Shown in pieces: positions 12,564 to 61,728 of a DNA stretch of 64,000 bases. Source of the stretch: Limisphaerales bacterium (GTDB taxonomy: Bacteria > Verrucomicrobiota > Verrucomicrobiia > Limisphaerales > UBA1100); assembly GCA_014382585.1 (NCBI GenBank), contig JACNJL010000037.1, positions 1-64,000 on the forward strand, written 5' to 3'. The notes below the pieces were generated by a model. The model worked only from the letters and a program-made list of their open reading frames with translations, did no database searches and was not told the DNA's origin. A program made the position numbers and the translations under genes. Within the stretch, counting starts at the first letter, position 1, and the number at the start of each line of letters is the position of its first letter.

Positions 12564-13697
12564 ATGAAACATTTTCTCTTGCTCACGCTTGCTTTTGTCC
12601 TGAATTTTTCTGCGTTGGCGGAAAAGAAACTGGTGAAGGTTTTCATCTTGGCCGGACAATCGAATATGGAGGGCAAGGGCGGGATTGATCCGTTGTTGAA
12701 CCATCAAATCAAGGCGCCGGAGACGAAGGCGTTTTTTGCGCATCTGCACAAGGAGGGGAAGTACATCGAGCGCGATGATGTTTGGATTAATTATTTGAAC
12801 CGACGCGGCAAGTTGACGGTGGGTTACGGCTCGCCGGGCAAGATCGGGCCGGAGCTGGAGTTTGGCCACGTGGTAGGCGATCACTATGAGGAGCCGGTGT
12901 TGATCATCAAAACCGCGTGGGGCGGCAAGAGCATTGGGCGTGATTTCCGGCCGCCGAGTTCGGGGCTGCAGTCGAAGGAAAAGATTGCGGAGTTCATCGA
13001 GAATATGTGCAAGCGTGATTTTAATAATCAGATTCGCAACGAATGGAACAAGGCGAAAAAGGATAACCCGAAAATCACGCGCAAGGAAATTGAGGCCAAG
13101 AGCAGCGCCTCACTCGACGCCATTCGCAAAGCCAGGGCCGGTGAGTATCGCAAACAAGTGGAGGAAAGCTACGGCCATTATTATCGGCTGATGATGGAGG
13201 AGATAGCGGTGACGTTGAATGAGTTCAAACAACGCTTTCCGGATTACGACGGACGCGGCTATGAGCTGGCCGGTTTCGTGTGGTTCCAAGGATGGAACGA
13301 TATGTACAACGGATTTCAGGATGAGTACGCGGCGAACATGGCGAACTTCATCCGCGACGTGCGCAAGGATTTGAAGTCGCCAAAGCTCCCCTTTGTTATC
13401 GGCCTCATGGGCCAAAATGGATTCAAAGAGGCGCAAGGAAATATGGCCCTCGTGAAGGCGGCGCAGTTGTCGATGAACGACATCGCCGAATTCAAAGGCA
13501 ATGTGAAAGCCATCCCGACGGATGTTTACTGGGACAAAAAAGCGGATGCGGCCTATCCAACGTGGCGCAACAACTTCGAAGCTTGGAAAAAAATCGGTTC
13601 CGACCGGCCTTATCATTATCTCGGCAGCACCATCACCTTTTCCAAAATCGGCCGCGCCTTTGGCGAAACGATGCTGGAGTTGCGCAACGGCAAATAG
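12564..13697 (+). CDS. Exported SGNH-like carbohydrate esterase (sialate O-acetylesterase family)
   Basis: 377 residues from MKHFLLLTLAFVLNFSALA (signal peptide); an ATG 9 nt upstream (12555) is the alternative. FILAGQSNMEGKG is block I of the SASA/CE6-type esterases with nucleophile Ser. HIGPELEFGHVV-like 'KIGPELEFGHVVGD', 'LIIKTAWGGKS' and 'GFVWFQGWNDMYNG' are the other conserved blocks. It removes acetyl groups from polysaccharide, outside the cytoplasm. A ~100-residue helical insert (about 140-220, Lys/Glu rich) separates the blocks. Its last codons (AAC GGC AAA TAG) form the first unit of the downstream tandem repeat. A paralogue is at 22778-23740. Confidence 0.88.
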   Translation: MKHFLLLTLAFVLNFSALAEKKLVKVFILAGQSNMEGKGGIDPLLNHQIKAPETKAFFAHLHKEGKYIERDDVWINYLNRRGKLTVGYGSPGKIGPELEFGHVVGDHYEEPVLIIKTAWGGKSIGRDFRPPSSGLQSKEKIAEFIENMCKRDFNNQIRNEWNKAKKDNPKITRKEIEAKSSASLDAIRKARAGEYRKQVEESYGHYYRLMMEEIAVTLNEFKQRFPDYDGRGYELAGFVWFQGWNDMYNGFQDEYAANMANFIRDVRKDLKSPKLPFVIGLMGQNGFKEAQGNMALVKAAQLSMNDIAEFKGNVKAIPTDVYWDKKADAAYPTWRNNFEAWKKIGSDRPYHYLGSTITFSKIGRAFGETMLELRNGK

Positions 13698-13802
13698 GAA
13701 CGGCAAATAGGAACGGCAAATAGGAACGGCAAATAGGAACGGCAAATAGGAACGGCAAATAGGAACGGCAAATAGGAACGGCAAATAGGAACGGCAAATA
13801 GG
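13686..13802. repeat. 13-bp tandem repeat, nine copies
   Basis: Unit AACGGCAAATAGG repeats perfectly nine times from 13686 to 13802. A decayed tenth unit (AATGGCGAACAAC, 13803-13815) contains the start codon of the next gene. Copy 1 encodes the last residues and stop of the upstream esterase (N-G-K-stop). Each copy holds an AGGAA that resembles a ribosome-binding core. The unit length is not a multiple of 3. No spacers, so not a CRISPR. Confidence 0.97.
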
Positions 13803-13803
13803 A

Positions 13804-14793
13804 ATGGCGAACAACAAAAGAAAGCCATTGGTCGCGGTGCTCGATTGGAAAACCGCGCCGGCCAGCAGCAGTGGAGTGGATATCGAGGCCAAGGTGCTTG
13901 GCAATATCTCGCGCACGAAATATTTCCTCATTAATTCCGAAAACGATTTCACGGCGGAAATTCTTAATGCAGAAGTATTGGTGGTTTGGCAAAACACGCG
14001 TATCACCGAGCGAACCTTGTCGCGGTTAAAAAACTGCCGCGCACTTATTCGCAACGGTGTGGGGTTTGATTCGGTGGATATTGACGCTGCGGCGCGCGTC
14101 GGCATTCCCGTTTGCAACGTGCCCGATTACGGCACCGAGGAGGTGGCCGATCACGCCATTGCGCTGGCCTTGGCGCAGGTGCGGCAGCTCTTTCCGCTTA
14201 ACCGCGAAGCATTATCGCTCGGCTGGACGCTGCACGTGAAACACAAACTGCGCCGGTTAAGCTCGCTCACCCTCGGCATCGTGGGGCTGGGCCGCATTGG
14301 TACGGCGAGTGCACTGCGTGCGAAGGCGCTTGGCTTCCGCGTGGTATTTTATGATCCGTATCTGCCCAGCGGTGTGCACAAGGCGGTGGGCATTGAGCGC
14401 GTGGATGCTTTGACCCAACTGCTGAAGCAATCGGATGTGGTGTCGCTGCATTGTCCGCTAAATGACGAGACGCAATATCTCATTGCGGAAAAGGAATTGG
14501 CCCTGATGAAGCCGACGGCGTATCTCGTAAACACCGCGCGCGGGGGGGTGGTGAACAAGAAAGCGGTGCTTGCCGCGTTGCGAAAAGGCGTGATCGCCGG
14601 CGCGGGGCTGGATGTGATTGAGGACGAGCCACTCAAAACCAAAGCCGAAGCGCGCACGCCCAATCTCATCGCCACTTGTCACGCGGCGTTTTGCAGCGTG
14701 GAGGGCATGATTGAAATGCGCACCACTTCCGCCCGCATCGCCAAGCAAGCGGTGCTGGGCCAGCCGCTGGACAACGTGGTGAACGGGCTTTAA
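13804..14793 (+). CDS. D-isomer-specific 2-hydroxyacid dehydrogenase (CtBP-like)
   Basis: 329 residues. The Rossmann NAD-binding motif is GIVGLGRIGTASA (about residues 160-172) with VVFYDPYLP following. The catalytic triad of the family is visible: Arg in VNTARGGVV, Glu in DVIEDEP and His in ATCHAAFCS. 'NVPDYGTEEVADHAIALAL' is the signature block before the NAD domain. It reduces or oxidises a 2-keto/2-hydroxy acid with NAD(H); substrate unknown. The ATG at 13804 sits directly at the end of the 13-bp tandem repeat, so its translation signals lie inside that repeat. Its stop overlaps by 4 nt the convergent sulfatase. Confidence 0.9.
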   Translation: MANNKRKPLVAVLDWKTAPASSSGVDIEAKVLGNISRTKYFLINSENDFTAEILNAEVLVVWQNTRITERTLSRLKNCRALIRNGVGFDSVDIDAAARVGIPVCNVPDYGTEEVADHAIALALAQVRQLFPLNREALSLGWTLHVKHKLRRLSSLTLGIVGLGRIGTASALRAKALGFRVVFYDPYLPSGVHKAVGIERVDALTQLLKQSDVVSLHCPLNDETQYLIAEKELALMKPTAYLVNTARGGVVNKKAVLAALRKGVIAGAGLDVIEDEPLKTKAEARTPNLIATCHAAFCSVEGMIEMRTTSARIAKQAVLGQPLDNVVNGL

Positions 14794-16453: not shown

Positions 16454-18190
16454 TCAGGCACGCGATCGTTTGCCGTTGAGCATGGTGCCGATGAATGTGT
16501 AGCGGACGACGAATTCATAAATCACCAATAGCGGTAGGGTGGTGAGGGCGCAGGCGATGAGGAATTTCAGAATGCTCGGCAGCGCCCACGGGCTGATCCA
16601 CGCCTGCACCAGCATGATCACCGGCAGGTGCGCGATGTACAGCCAGTAGGACGAATCGGAGATGTACCGGATGAATTTGTTTTCACCGGAGAAAAATTTG
16701 CGGAAGAAACCGATAAAGCCGAAGATCATCAGCCACGTATAAGCCACCGTGCAGGCGGCTAGCAGCGCGCCGTTGTTTCTGCTGCGCACGAGGCACAGTC
16801 CCGCGAGCAGCAAGGGTACCGCGAGCGCAAAACTCAGCGGCCATCGTTGGCCCACTTTGTTTTCAAATGAGTCGCGTCCAAAACACATTGCACCGAAGCC
16901 GAAGAAAATCGCGTAATAAATCAGCAAAGGCGGCCACGGCAAAAAACCCACCGCGGTGGTTGGCCCAAAGTCTCCGGGCATCATCAGTTGCGGCACAAAG
17001 GTGACCGGCAACAGCCATAGCCAACGCCACGGCGAGGTGATCCATCCATCGGACAACGCCTTCCACTTAAGTTTGCCGAGCAGCCACGTGATCAAAAGGA
17101 AACCTGCCACCAACCACGCGAGATAATAAAGGAACCACAAATGATGAAACACCGGCGCGAAAAAGATAAGCATCATCAGTGGTCCGCCAAGCGCGCCCTT
17201 GAGATTGCCGCCTTCGGATTGTTGGCCGCCCGCCTCGGTGAGCATTTTGGCGATGACCGGTCGGGTGGCTTTGACGCGTTCCAAGTCCAAGTTCAATTGA
17301 AACAGGCCGTCAACAAATTTGTAAATGCCTTCCACTTCCCCCCATTTCCCACTGACATTCGAAAGCGCGGTGTCGCCTTTTTTATTTTTTGCGTTCACCT
17401 CCGCGCCATTTTTCAGCAGCAGCGCCACAAAATCTGTGTGGCAGAAAAAAGCAGCCAAGTGCAGCGCGGTATCGCCTTCCTTATTTTTCGCATTCACCAG
17501 CGCGCCGCCTTCCACCAGCAGCCGTGCCGCCTCGGTGTTGCCGTACAGCGCAGCCACGATCAGCGGTGTGCTGCCGCCGGTGGGCTCGCGCGTTTCCAAA
17601 TCCGTGCCACCCGCAATGTGCCGTTTGAGTGCCCCCGCATACTGCGGATCCAATGCGGTAAAAATATCCACGTCCGCAGTTTCGCCGGGATTCTCCAGTC
17701 TGGATTCTGCTTGCATCGCCGCCACTTCTTTTTTCTTTGCATCACCGTACATCCCGGCGGGAATGATGGCGCCCCAAACCAGCGGCAGAGCAATTGCGAG
17801 CGGCAGCAGAATCCGTTTGGCGCGATGTTTGGCCAGTGATTTCAAACCGCGATTGCGCCACAGCATTGCGGTAAAAAAGCCACTCACCAAAAAAAACAAT
17901 TGCATTCGAAAGCCATGCACCGCGTGCAGAACAAACTCATACGGGCTGTAAGTCGGCGGCGCGTCGAGCCCCGCAGCCTCAAGCGGCGTAGCCAGCGCGG
18001 CGGGCACTTCCACCACCGGCTGCTGCAAATCCTGTGCCGGCCAGATGGGCACGGGAAAAAACGAAAGCACCCCGTGCAGCACAATGCCAAGCAACATCGC
18101 GAATGCACGCAGGGCATCCAGGTCGTGGAAGCGTTTCTTTTCCAACACCGGCAAAGGTGATGTGGACTCAATGACAGGAGGTTGCTCCAA
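16454..18190 (-). CDS. Membrane acyltransferase-3 family protein with inserted ankyrin domain
   Basis: 578 residues. The N-terminal half matches acyltransferase 3/OpgC-like enzymes: LDALRAFAMLLGIVLHGVLSFF (TM1, 24-45), FRMQLFFLVSGFFTAMLW (TM2, 94-111), ILLPLAIALPLVWGAIIPAG (TM3, 127-146), then from about 340 FHHLWFLYYLAWLVAGF and six or more further membrane segments. Between TM3 and TM4, residues ~173-320 are a soluble ankyrin module (GGSTPLIVAALYGNTEAARLL; DTALHLAAFFCHTDFVALLL). The charge distribution (KHRAKR before TM3) puts this insert in the periplasm. The same module, including its non-ankyrin tail, forms the neighbouring lipoprotein. It probably transfers an acyl group to a surface glycan. 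Confidence 0.85.
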   Translation of the reverse strand: MEQPPVIESTSPLPVLEKKRFHDLDALRAFAMLLGIVLHGVLSFFPVPIWPAQDLQQPVVEVPAALATPLEAAGLDAPPTYSPYEFVLHAVHGFRMQLFFLVSGFFTAMLWRNRGLKSLAKHRAKRILLPLAIALPLVWGAIIPAGMYGDAKKKEVAAMQAESRLENPGETADVDIFTALDPQYAGALKRHIAGGTDLETREPTGGSTPLIVAALYGNTEAARLLVEGGALVNAKNKEGDTALHLAAFFCHTDFVALLLKNGAEVNAKNKKGDTALSNVSGKWGEVEGIYKFVDGLFQLNLDLERVKATRPVIAKMLTEAGGQQSEGGNLKGALGGPLMMLIFFAPVFHHLWFLYYLAWLVAGFLLITWLLGKLKWKALSDGWITSPWRWLWLLPVTFVPQLMMPGDFGPTTAVGFLPWPPLLIYYAIFFGFGAMCFGRDSFENKVGQRWPLSFALAVPLLLAGLCLVRSRNNGALLAACTVAYTWLMIFGFIGFFRKFFSGENKFIRYISDSSYWLYIAHLPVIMLVQAWISPWALPSILKFLIACALTTLPLLVIYEFVVRYTFIGTMLNGKRSRA

Positions 18191-18204
18191 AAAGTTTCCC
18201 AGTG

Positions 18205-18747
18205 CTAACTCAGCATCTCGGCGATTTTGGGCCGGGTTTGCTGGATTCGATTATAATCCAACGGAATCCCAGCCGGTTTAAAAAGGATTCCGTTTAATAA
18301 ATCATAGATAGGCTTGACCTGATCCCAAGGTGCCAGCGCTCCATCGAGTGCGGTTGCACCTGTGTTGGATTTGATTGCTTTATCCGCGCCCGCCTTTAGG
18401 AGTGCCTTCACGATCTCGGGGTGACACAGGAATGCGGCCGTATGCAACGCGGTATTGCCATCTTTATTTTGGAGGTTCAAGTCCGCCTTGGCTTCAATAA
18501 GCATCTTGGCAGCTTCCGCTTGCCCCAAGCCAGCGGCCGCCATCAGTGGGGTGGTTTTTTGGCCATCCGTCGAACGCTGATTCAGGTCGGTGCCGGCTGC
18601 GATATGTTGCTTAAGTGCCTCAAGATTCCCTTCACCTGCTGCCTTGAAGACATCCACATTGGGTGGGGCTGGTTTCGCGGTTTCTTCTTTATTGCCGCAG
18701 CCAATTAGCAGCGCGGCAATCAGTGGGGTTATGAGTAGTTGATTCAT
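18205..18747 (-). CDS. Ankyrin-repeat lipoprotein, paralogue of the acyltransferase insert
   Basis: 180 residues from MNQLLITPLIAALLIGC, a lipoprotein signal with LIGC lipobox (Cys17). Ankyrin repeats follow: DVFKAAGEGNLEALKQHI, KTTPLMAAAGLGQAEAAKMLI, GNTALHTAAFLCHPEIVKALL. The C-terminal block (WDQVKPIYDLLNG... RIQQTRPKIAEML) matches the acyltransferase insert (WGEVEGIYKFVDG... RVKATRPVIAKML), so the two arose by duplication. It lies 14 nt upstream of the acyltransferase start and is co-oriented, so co-expression and a periplasmic partnership are likely. No enzymatic motif. Confidence 0.85.
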   Translation of the reverse strand: MNQLLITPLIAALLIGCGNKEETAKPAPPNVDVFKAAGEGNLEALKQHIAAGTDLNQRSTDGQKTTPLMAAAGLGQAEAAKMLIEAKADLNLQNKDGNTALHTAAFLCHPEIVKALLKAGADKAIKSNTGATALDGALAPWDQVKPIYDLLNGILFKPAGIPLDYNRIQQTRPKIAEMLS

Positions 18748-18821: not shown

Positions 18822-20108
18822 TTATTTGCTGCCGCCCCGAATAACCCCTTGCTGTGCCGCTTCGAGTCCGGCGTCCATTTTGTTGAGGACACTGTTGAGT
18901 TGTGGATGATCAAATTCGTCACGGAAATTTTCAATCAACCGGCGGCGGTTGGCAATGTTTTGTGCGGGTGCCTCGTTGATGCCCTGCATCAGCGCGCTGA
19001 GCGGCAGTTTTATCGCTCCCCAATTTAACGCTCCGCTTTCTTCCTGCTGGGCCATCCCTTCCCGCATGGTTTGCATCAGCAACACATCCGCCTTCGGATC
19101 CGCGCCAATGTGACGGAGGATCGCATCGCGAATGGCGTACCGGTCAAGGTCGTCGGTAAGCCGATCATCGTTCATCACGGTATGAAAAATTGGCAACGCA
19201 TCCGTTCCCAAAACCTGCCGCAGATAACGCAGCACATCGCCATCGAGCCGGCCGTCAGCGGTGATGAGCAGTGTCTTGGCGGTGTCCACAAAAACGAGGT
19301 CCTTGTATTTCACGAGGATGGCGTAGAGAAAACCTTTTGCGCGGCGATCCACCGCCATCGAGTCGGCCGTGATGGGCGGCAGCTCCGTGAGCAAGCGCCG
19401 TGTGGCCTCGAGAATTTTGTCCACGTACAGGTCACGCGCGATTTCTTGCAGGGCGGTTTCGAGATAGGCCACCTCCACACCGCGTCGGGTGTTTTCCAAA
19501 ATCTTTAGCAGCAACTGCTCCGCCTGTTCCGAGCCGATGGCCGCCACCACCTCCAGCAACCCCAATCGCAGTGTGGCCGGAAATTCATCGTTTGGTTTCG
19601 GAAACGGCCGGAAATAATTCCAGGCTGATGCGGCAAGTTTCTTACCCTCTTTGCCGTTGCTTTTGTCTCCGGCAGTTTTCTTTTCTTTGGCCGCTTGCGC
19701 TTTGGGGGGGTCCAGCGATCCTAATTCCAAATCTACATTCCGCTCCAAAAAATTTGCTATCCCCGGCAGCGCCGCATCCCCCCGGTCGACCAGCGATTCC
19801 AGAAAATACACCGCCCGCCGTTTCACCCGTGTGTCGCCCGGCTTCAACTCCTGCAACCGCGCCAGAATTTCTTGCACTGTGGCCACTGTGGGTTCCTGGG
19901 CTTCATGGCCATCCACGGTAACAATCACCGCCGCCCGCGCTTTCGCCGCATTCAACTCACCGCGCATCCCGGCTTTGGTCTCCTCATTGGTGCGTACCAA
20001 ATCTGAAGCTGCCTCATCCCGGGCTGAGGAATGTCCCGTCGAAACCATCCAGAACGTGGCTCCCGAGGTCAACCCCGCCGTCACCAAAATTAGAATCATA
20101 TTTTTCAT
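18822..20108 (-). CDS. Exported/anchored alpha-helical repeat protein, unknown function
   Basis: 428 residues. One N-terminal hydrophobic segment (MILILVTAGLTSGATFWMV) acts as signal or anchor. The rest is predicted helical with HEAT-like periodicity (RLGLLEVVAAIGSEQAEQLLLKIL; RYAIRDAILRHIGADPKADVLL). A low-complexity Lys/Ala/Gly-rich linker (AKEKKTAGDKSNGKEGKK, about 145-165) divides it. No known family recognised. It ends about 75 nt upstream of the ankyrin lipoprotein on the same strand and may be transcribed with it. Confidence 0.7.
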   Translation of the reverse strand: MKNMILILVTAGLTSGATFWMVSTGHSSARDEAASDLVRTNEETKAGMRGELNAAKARAAVIVTVDGHEAQEPTVATVQEILARLQELKPGDTRVKRRAVYFLESLVDRGDAALPGIANFLERNVDLELGSLDPPKAQAAKEKKTAGDKSNGKEGKKLAASAWNYFRPFPKPNDEFPATLRLGLLEVVAAIGSEQAEQLLLKILENTRRGVEVAYLETALQEIARDLYVDKILEATRRLLTELPPITADSMAVDRRAKGFLYAILVKYKDLVFVDTAKTLLITADGRLDGDVLRYLRQVLGTDALPIFHTVMNDDRLTDDLDRYAIRDAILRHIGADPKADVLLMQTMREGMAQQEESGALNWGAIKLPLSALMQGINEAPAQNIANRRRLIENFRDEFDHPQLNSVLNKMDAGLEAAQQGVIRGGSK

Positions 20109-61644: not shown

Positions 61645-61684
61645 TTGAGGCTCAGCCGTTGAAATTGAGGCTCAGCCGTTGAAA
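61645..61684. repeat. 20-bp direct tandem duplication
   Basis: TTGAGGCTCAGCCGTTGAAA occurs twice without a gap (61645-61664, 61665-61684) between the tail-anchored protein gene and the TA promoter. Function unknown. Confidence 0.95.
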
Positions 61685-61728
61685 TTTTTCCAACAAACCC
61701 AAATATCCGATTTTTCACCAAAAACAAG

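What the first reader, a model, noticed from the sequence alone, without database searches (positions are those of the whole stretch)
16454..18747. Ankyrin module inserted in a membrane acyltransferase and duplicated as a lipoprotein
An acyltransferase-3 protein carries a ~150-residue ankyrin module between TM3 and TM4. The gene upstream encodes a lipoprotein made of the same module. The similarity includes a non-ankyrin tail (W..V..IY...G...R....RP.IA.ML), so it is true duplication and not convergence. Charge distribution places both modules in the periplasm. The insertion splits the acyltransferase membrane core. A plausible use is that the lipoprotein and the acyltransferase insert bind the same partner or each other to control glycan acylation. 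I am not aware of such a pair being described.
Basis: partly seen in the sequence, partly recalled or inferred. Interest (0 to 1): 0.75.

Follow-up and report, generated by a model that had tools for sequence, protein, structure and literature searches.

The report
Acyltransferase with swappable ankyrin module
A bacterial membrane enzyme that probably adds acyl groups to envelope molecules carries a protein-binding ankyrin module outside the membrane; this turns out to be an old, widespread enzyme subfamily whose module recurs in other envelope proteins and has been swapped by recombination, which suggests it sets what the enzyme docks to.

Summary
The gene encodes an AT3 (PF01757, OpgC-like) acyltransferase with an ankyrin module of about 150 residues in the extracytoplasmic TM3-TM4 loop. 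The gene 14 nt upstream encodes a lipoprotein made of a homologous module (45% identity over 162 aa, tail included).

The interpretation needs revising. The insert is not a local novelty. All 80 best relatives in a genome-wide scan carry it at the same place, across Verrucomicrobiota, Planctomycetota, Gemmatimonadota, Latescibacterota and others. Nor is the pair a duplication of one gene from the other: the two modules belong to separate old branches (AU p=3e-32 against sisterhood). The same module family, with a near-invariant Arg in an added C-terminal cap helix, also sits in CotH-kinase and cytochrome/beta-propeller proteins.

An upstream same-strand module gene adjoins 18 of 94 AT3-ankyrin genes, against 1 of 100 downstream, so the linkage is real but optional. 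Within the genus the insert was swapped: two acyltransferases are mostly 83-98% identical on both sides of the module but only 46-60% inside it.

Most likely mechanism: an exchangeable docking module beside the acyl pore. No partner is shown. I found no paper describing AT3-ankyrin proteins.

The parts
16454..18190 (-). Acyltransferase-3 (OpgC-like) gene, TTG start, 578 aa, with ankyrin module in the TM3-TM4 loop
   Evidence: Pfam PF01757 104 bits plus Ank families; start conserved in same-genus orthologues; AF2 pLDDT 87.7, pTM 0.82
18074..18118 (-). D25-x-x-R28-x10-H39 motif of TM1 (AT3 acyl-CoA pore)
   Evidence: invariant in the 35- and 40-row alignments; motif described in PMC9833829 and PMC12423673
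17813..17824 (-). R123-x-x-R126 motif on the cytoplasmic side of TM3
   Evidence: invariant; PMC9833829
17693..17845 (-). Helix 116-166: TM3 running on as a stalk into the ankyrin module
   Evidence: AF2 DSSP
17234..17689 (-). Ankyrin module inserted in the acyltransferase (residues 168-319)
   Evidence: Pfam, AF2, VIA-align Z about 19 to DARPins over residues 173-326
17225..17365 (-). Module tail: fourth repeat with long second helix plus cap helix, containing near-invariant R310
   Evidence: alignment; Arg at this column in 96% of 130 non-redundant modules
18205..18747 (-). Ankyrin lipoprotein (ATG start; listed ORF runs to GTG 18774)
   Evidence: lipobox LIGC, Pfam, AF2 pLDDT 89
18697..18708 (-). 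Lipobox LIGC
   Evidence: sequence; C conserved in 90% or more of 18 aligned lipoproteins and relatives
18211..18666 (-). Ankyrin module of the lipoprotein (four repeats plus cap helix)
   Evidence: module HMM 227 bits; AF2
18822..20108 (-). 428-aa exported-looking protein without Pfam match; conserved neighbour upstream of the lipoprotein in the genus
   Evidence: no Pfam hit; same place in L114 and L117

Best explanation
Shown: the acyltransferase belongs to a broad AT3 subfamily whose TM3-TM4 extracytoplasmic loop carries a specific ankyrin module (four repeats plus cap helix). The module family also stands alone as lipoproteins and is fused to CotH-kinase and cytochrome/beta-propeller proteins, and it has been replaced as a unit inside the acyltransferase. 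Inferred: the AT3 core brings an acyl group from cytoplasmic acyl-CoA to the periplasmic side through its pore (DxxR-x10-H, RxxR). The ankyrin module, held on the long TM3 helix beside the pore mouth, is a docking surface for a protein partner or acceptor carrier, so that acylation is directed or gated. The upstream lipoprotein presents a related surface and would bind the same class of partner, bringing it close or competing for it. Module replacement would retarget the enzyme without touching its catalytic core.
For: AT3 motifs invariant; the insert is at the same site in all 80 best named loci. A core-only query ranks every AT3-ankyrin orthologue above every insert-free AT3 outside the genus. 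Insert-free tandem paralogues nest inside the ankyrin clade and so probably lost it. Swap: G148 against G125 is mostly 83-98% nt on both sides and 46-60% across residues 181-315; their core clade is rejected in the module tree, p=0.0008; G125 and G150 inserts are 99% nt identical in repeats 1-3 while their N-terminal cores are 84%. Linkage 18/94 upstream against 1/100 downstream. A PA14 domain lies in the same loop of related AT3s, as expected for an extracytoplasmic loop. In OafB the TMH3-4 loop initially occludes the acyl pore (PMC9833829). Periplasmic ankyrin proteins that act on enzymes are known: Bdellovibrio self-protection protein (PMC4686830), Tli (PMC10294624), AnkB (cited in PMC10294975).
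Against: No binding partner, acceptor or acyl group is known. The lipoprotein is absent next to most AT3-ankyrin genes, and module lipoproteins occur in genomes without a detected AT3-ankyrin gene (for example G119 and G143). The near-invariant Arg and Phe may be purely structural.
Confidence: 0.45

Rival explanations
1. The module is a mechanical lid: it moves over the pore mouth and gates acyl transfer within the enzyme itself, without a protein partner; the lipoprotein is unrelated in function.
For: The TMH3-4 loop is the pore-occluding loop in OafB (PMC9833829); TM3 continues as one helix into the module; most loci lack a partner gene.
Against: The module is swapped for one of a different branch, it recurs in unrelated enzymes, and a tandem paralogue does without it.
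Confidence: 0.2
2. The lipoprotein binds the acyltransferase insert directly, and this complex controls glycan acylation.
For: Genes 14 nt apart; same order in same-genus G146 and G150; upstream linkage recurs in other families and in Planctomycetota.
Against: Four in five AT3-ankyrin genes have no such neighbour; the module also occurs in proteins unconnected with AT3.
Confidence: 0.15
3. The module is a generic shuffled domain of envelope proteins in these phyla, kept for stability or by chance, with no specific role in acylation.
For: Four contexts intermixed in the module tree: 11 changes where 3 is the minimum.
Against: Kept at one site across the subfamily, near-invariant non-consensus residues, asymmetric upstream linkage.
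Confidence: 0.12
4. The lipoprotein arose by recent local duplication of the acyltransferase insert, or the reverse.
For: 45% identity including the tail.
Against: The window lipoprotein module is 64% identical to a lipoprotein of another genus and 85-86% to lipoproteins of its own genus, but 45-46% to its neighbouring insert; sisterhood rejected, p=3e-32.
Confidence: 0.02

Closest known systems
Acyltransferase-3 / TmAT superfamily (PF01757; OafB, OacA, HGSNAT)
   Same: Pfam match over cut-off, DxxR-x10-H and RxxR motifs, long periplasmic TMH3-4 loop
   Different: An ankyrin module in the TMH3-4 loop; the AT3 review and structure papers read here describe stand-alone and SGNH-fused forms and do not mention ankyrin
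OpgC/MdoC glucan succinyltransferases (NF003014)
   Same: Best named family: 93 bits, E=2e-26
   Different: Far below the equivalog cut-off of 338 bits; substrate unknown; no ankyrin module known in that family
AT3-SGNH acyltransferases (OafB, OatA)
   Same: An AT3 core with an added extracytoplasmic domain that may decide acceptor handling
   Different: The added domain is ankyrin in an internal loop, not a C-terminal SGNH catalytic domain with TMH11
Periplasmic ankyrin proteins that act on enzymes (Bdellovibrio self-protection protein, Tli, P. aeruginosa AnkB)
   Same: Exported ankyrin proteins acting on an enzyme in the envelope; Tli is a lipoprotein
   Different: Stand-alone proteins in other phyla; a shared cap helix was not tested; none is known to be fused into an acyltransferase
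CotH-kinase proteins (PF08757) with the same module
   Same: Carry one or two copies of this module, sometimes just upstream of the AT3-ankyrin gene
   Different: Kinase-like domain instead of a membrane acyltransferase

Membership tests
Acyltransferase-3 (PF01757) | Pfam match above the gathering score | tested here: met
   104.2 bits against cut-off 31
Acyltransferase-3 (PF01757) | DxxR-x10-H in TM1 and RxxR at TM3 | tested here: met
   D25, R28, H39, R123, R126 invariant in 40 sequences
Acyltransferase-3 (PF01757) | Ten-TMH fold | tested here: inconclusive
   AF2 gives 10-11 membrane-length helices; PDB fold searches were filled by ankyrins, so the membrane fold was not compared
Acyltransferase-3 (PF01757) | Acyl transfer to an extracytoplasmic acceptor | not testable with these tools
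   needs biochemistry
OpgC/MdoC equivalog (NF003014) | Score over the curated cut-off | tested here: not met
   93.1 against 338 bits
AT3-SGNH proteins | C-terminal SGNH domain | tested here: not met
   no SGNH-type hit in Pfam; the protein ends 16 residues after the last membrane helix
Ankyrin repeat proteins | Tandem helix-turn-helix repeats matching Ank models | tested here: met
   PF12796 57.8 and 67.1 bits; AF2; VIA-align Z about 19 for the insert
Bacterial lipoproteins | N-terminal signal with lipobox | tested here: met
   MNQLLITPLIAALLIGC, cysteine conserved in the family
Bacterial lipoproteins | Lipidation in vivo | not testable with these tools
   needs experiment
AT3-ankyrin subfamily defined here | Module in the TM3-TM4 loop with cap-helix Arg | tested here: met
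   80 of 80 best loci have the insert at the same place; Arg in 94% of 78 non-redundant AT3 inserts

The most novel reading that the evidence does not exclude
The loop module is an exchangeable specificity cassette: recombination with related envelope ankyrin modules retargets a transmembrane acyltransferase to new partners or acceptors, while linked lipoproteins and CotH-kinase proteins carrying sister modules assemble on, or compete for, the same target. This would be a modular docking code in the envelope of Verrucomicrobiota and Planctomycetota.
Probability: 0.25. Interest if true: 0.75.

Novelty: new variant of a known kind. Interest (0 to 1): 0.55.

Why it matters
How AT3 enzymes choose and reach their acceptor is open; the 2022 AT3 review asks whether AT3-only proteins need a partner protein (PMC9558356). 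A large AT3 subfamily with a protein-binding module in the very loop that occludes the pore in OafB, natural insert-free tandem paralogues, and natural module swaps between close relatives make that question directly testable. It also defines an exported ankyrin module shared by acyltransferases, CotH kinases and cytochrome proteins in phyla whose envelopes are poorly understood.

Tried and rejected
Local duplication: rejected by tree and AU test. One origin of all nine same-genus AT3 inserts: the AU test alone did not reject it (p=0.08); the swap rests on the core-clade test and on the sliding identity. A fold search of the whole acyltransferase model returned only ankyrin/DARPin chains, so the membrane fold was not compared. 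A PDB sequence search with the lipoprotein profile gave only generic ankyrins, with the tail outside the aligned range. Literature searches for AT3 plus ankyrin, and for CotH plus ankyrin in these phyla, found nothing relevant. Coordinates of the models were not available, so contacts between module and pore could not be measured.

Full report
WHAT IS THERE. On the minus strand, window:16454-18190 encodes 578 aa with a split Acyl_transf_3 match (104 bits) around ankyrin repeats, and window:18205-18774 encodes an ankyrin lipoprotein. Its likely start is the ATG at 18747, which gives MNQLLITPLIAALLIGC. The stop and the next start are 14 nt apart. BLASTP aligns the two modules over 162 aa at 45% identity, E=1e-36, tail included.

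STRUCTURE AND TOPOLOGY. AlphaFold2 with an alignment of relatives gives pLDDT 87.7 and pTM 0.82 for the acyltransferase and 89.0 and 0.79 for the lipoprotein. The module occupies residues 168-319, between TM3, which runs on as one helix from 116 to 166, and TM4 at about 330. The 'non-ankyrin tail' is the fourth repeat, with a long second helix, followed by one extra cap helix (174-188 in the lipoprotein). Loop charges put the loop before TM2 and the module outside, and the loop before TM3 and the C-terminus inside. In related AT3s of the same family the same loop also holds a PA14 domain, which fits an extracytoplasmic place. The AT3 motifs D25xxR28x10H39 and R123xxR126 are invariant. They match those described for OafB, in which the TMH3-4 loop initially occludes the pore (PMC9833829).

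THE INSERT IS OLD AND WIDESPREAD. In 146 genomes of the order the full query finds many AT3-ankyrin proteins. In a scan of 84,980 species genomes all 80 best loci carry the module at the same site, in Verrucomicrobiota, Planctomycetota, Gemmatimonadota, Latescibacterota, Acidobacteriota, Armatimonadota and Poribacteria; the single hits labelled Chloroflexota and Legionellales are MAG labels only. That ranking favours insert-bearing proteins, so a core-only query was run as a control in the order. Every insert-free AT3 outside the genus scored at most 138 bits, below the best segment of each AT3-ankyrin orthologue. In the core tree the insert-free copies that sit in tandem downstream of the AT3-ankyrin gene in G125, G148 and G150 (and in G152 and G157) nest inside the ankyrin clade, so they probably lost the module.

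A MODULE FAMILY WITH SEVERAL HOSTS. The same module, tail included, is found in lipoproteins, doubled or tripled in longer proteins, fused to CotH kinase domains, and at the C-terminus of beta-propeller/di-haem cytochrome proteins. In 130 non-redundant modules the cap-helix Arg (R310 here, R181 in the lipoprotein) is present in 96% and a Phe in the third repeat (F248, F115) in 86%. Neither is an ankyrin consensus residue, from my own knowledge of that consensus. In the module tree the four contexts are intermixed (11 changes where 3 is the minimum).

NOT A LOCAL DUPLICATION. The window lipoprotein module is closest to lipoproteins of its own genus (85-86%) and of other genera (64%), and only 45-46% identical to its neighbouring insert. 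Holding the two window modules together is rejected (p-AU 3e-32).

MODULE SWAP. Among same-genus acyltransferases, G148 and G125 are mostly 83-98% identical (nt) up to the module, 46-60% across residues 181-315, and 86-96% again from 316 on (some N-terminal windows are lower, 63-81%). G148's insert is instead 74% identical (aa, repeats 1-3) to the window's. G125 and G150 inserts are 99% nt identical in repeats 1-3 while their N-terminal cores are 84%. The core clade of six is rejected in the module tree (p-AU 0.0008). The milder claim that all nine same-genus inserts form one clade was not rejected by AU alone (p 0.08). I take this as recombination that replaced the module as a unit; the G125/G150 type lies in the lipoprotein branch.

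LINKAGE. Among 104 non-redundant AT3-ankyrin genes, 18 of 94 with enough flank have a same-strand module gene within 150 bp upstream, against 1 of 100 downstream. The upstream partner is a lipoprotein, a CotH protein or a multi-module protein, in several Verrucomicrobiota families and in Planctomycetota. The 18 are not all independent. The pair is thus a recurrent but optional operon, not a fixed two-component system.

MECHANISM. Shown: anatomy, family, linkage, swap. Inferred: AT3 catalysis across the membrane, docking by the module, and a shared class of partner for lipoprotein and insert. Precedents for exported ankyrin proteins acting on enzymes exist. The substrate is unknown; OpgC is the nearest named family but the equivalog cut-off is not met.

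NOVELTY. AT3 reviews and structure papers read here do not mention ankyrin, and full-text searches found no description; the library lacks most subscription journals. I rate it a new variant of a known kind.

Noticed in passing
window 13686-13808: 9.5 almost perfect copies of a 13-bp tandem repeat (AACGGCAAATAGG) at the junction between a 393-aa gene and a D-2-hydroxyacid dehydrogenase gene.
   Followed up: no
window 18822-20108 (-): 428-aa exported-looking protein with no Pfam match, kept directly upstream of the lipoprotein in two same-genus genomes (L114:4347-5654, L117:4532-5875); elsewhere a DUF1501 gene lies upstream of the module genes.
   Followed up: partly
L122:321-2552 and L121:6823-9030: AT3 proteins of a sister genus whose TM3-TM4 loop holds an ankyrin module and a PA14 domain, preceded by genes with two or three modules.
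   Followed up: partly
L051:1301-2149: Ankyrin repeats fused to a YbjQ heavy-metal-binding domain near an AT3-ankyrin gene; 283-aa ankyrin genes at a similar place in L153 and L162 look alike.
   Followed up: no
L057:780-4106 and relatives: About 1,100-aa proteins with a YncE-like beta-propeller, a weak di-haem peroxidase match and this ankyrin module at the C-terminus.
   Followed up: partly
L199, L200, L209 (Planctomycetota): A two-module ankyrin gene directly abuts the AT3-ankyrin gene upstream, suggesting translational coupling.
   Followed up: no
window 61645-61686: Two copies of a 20-bp direct repeat.
   Followed up: no
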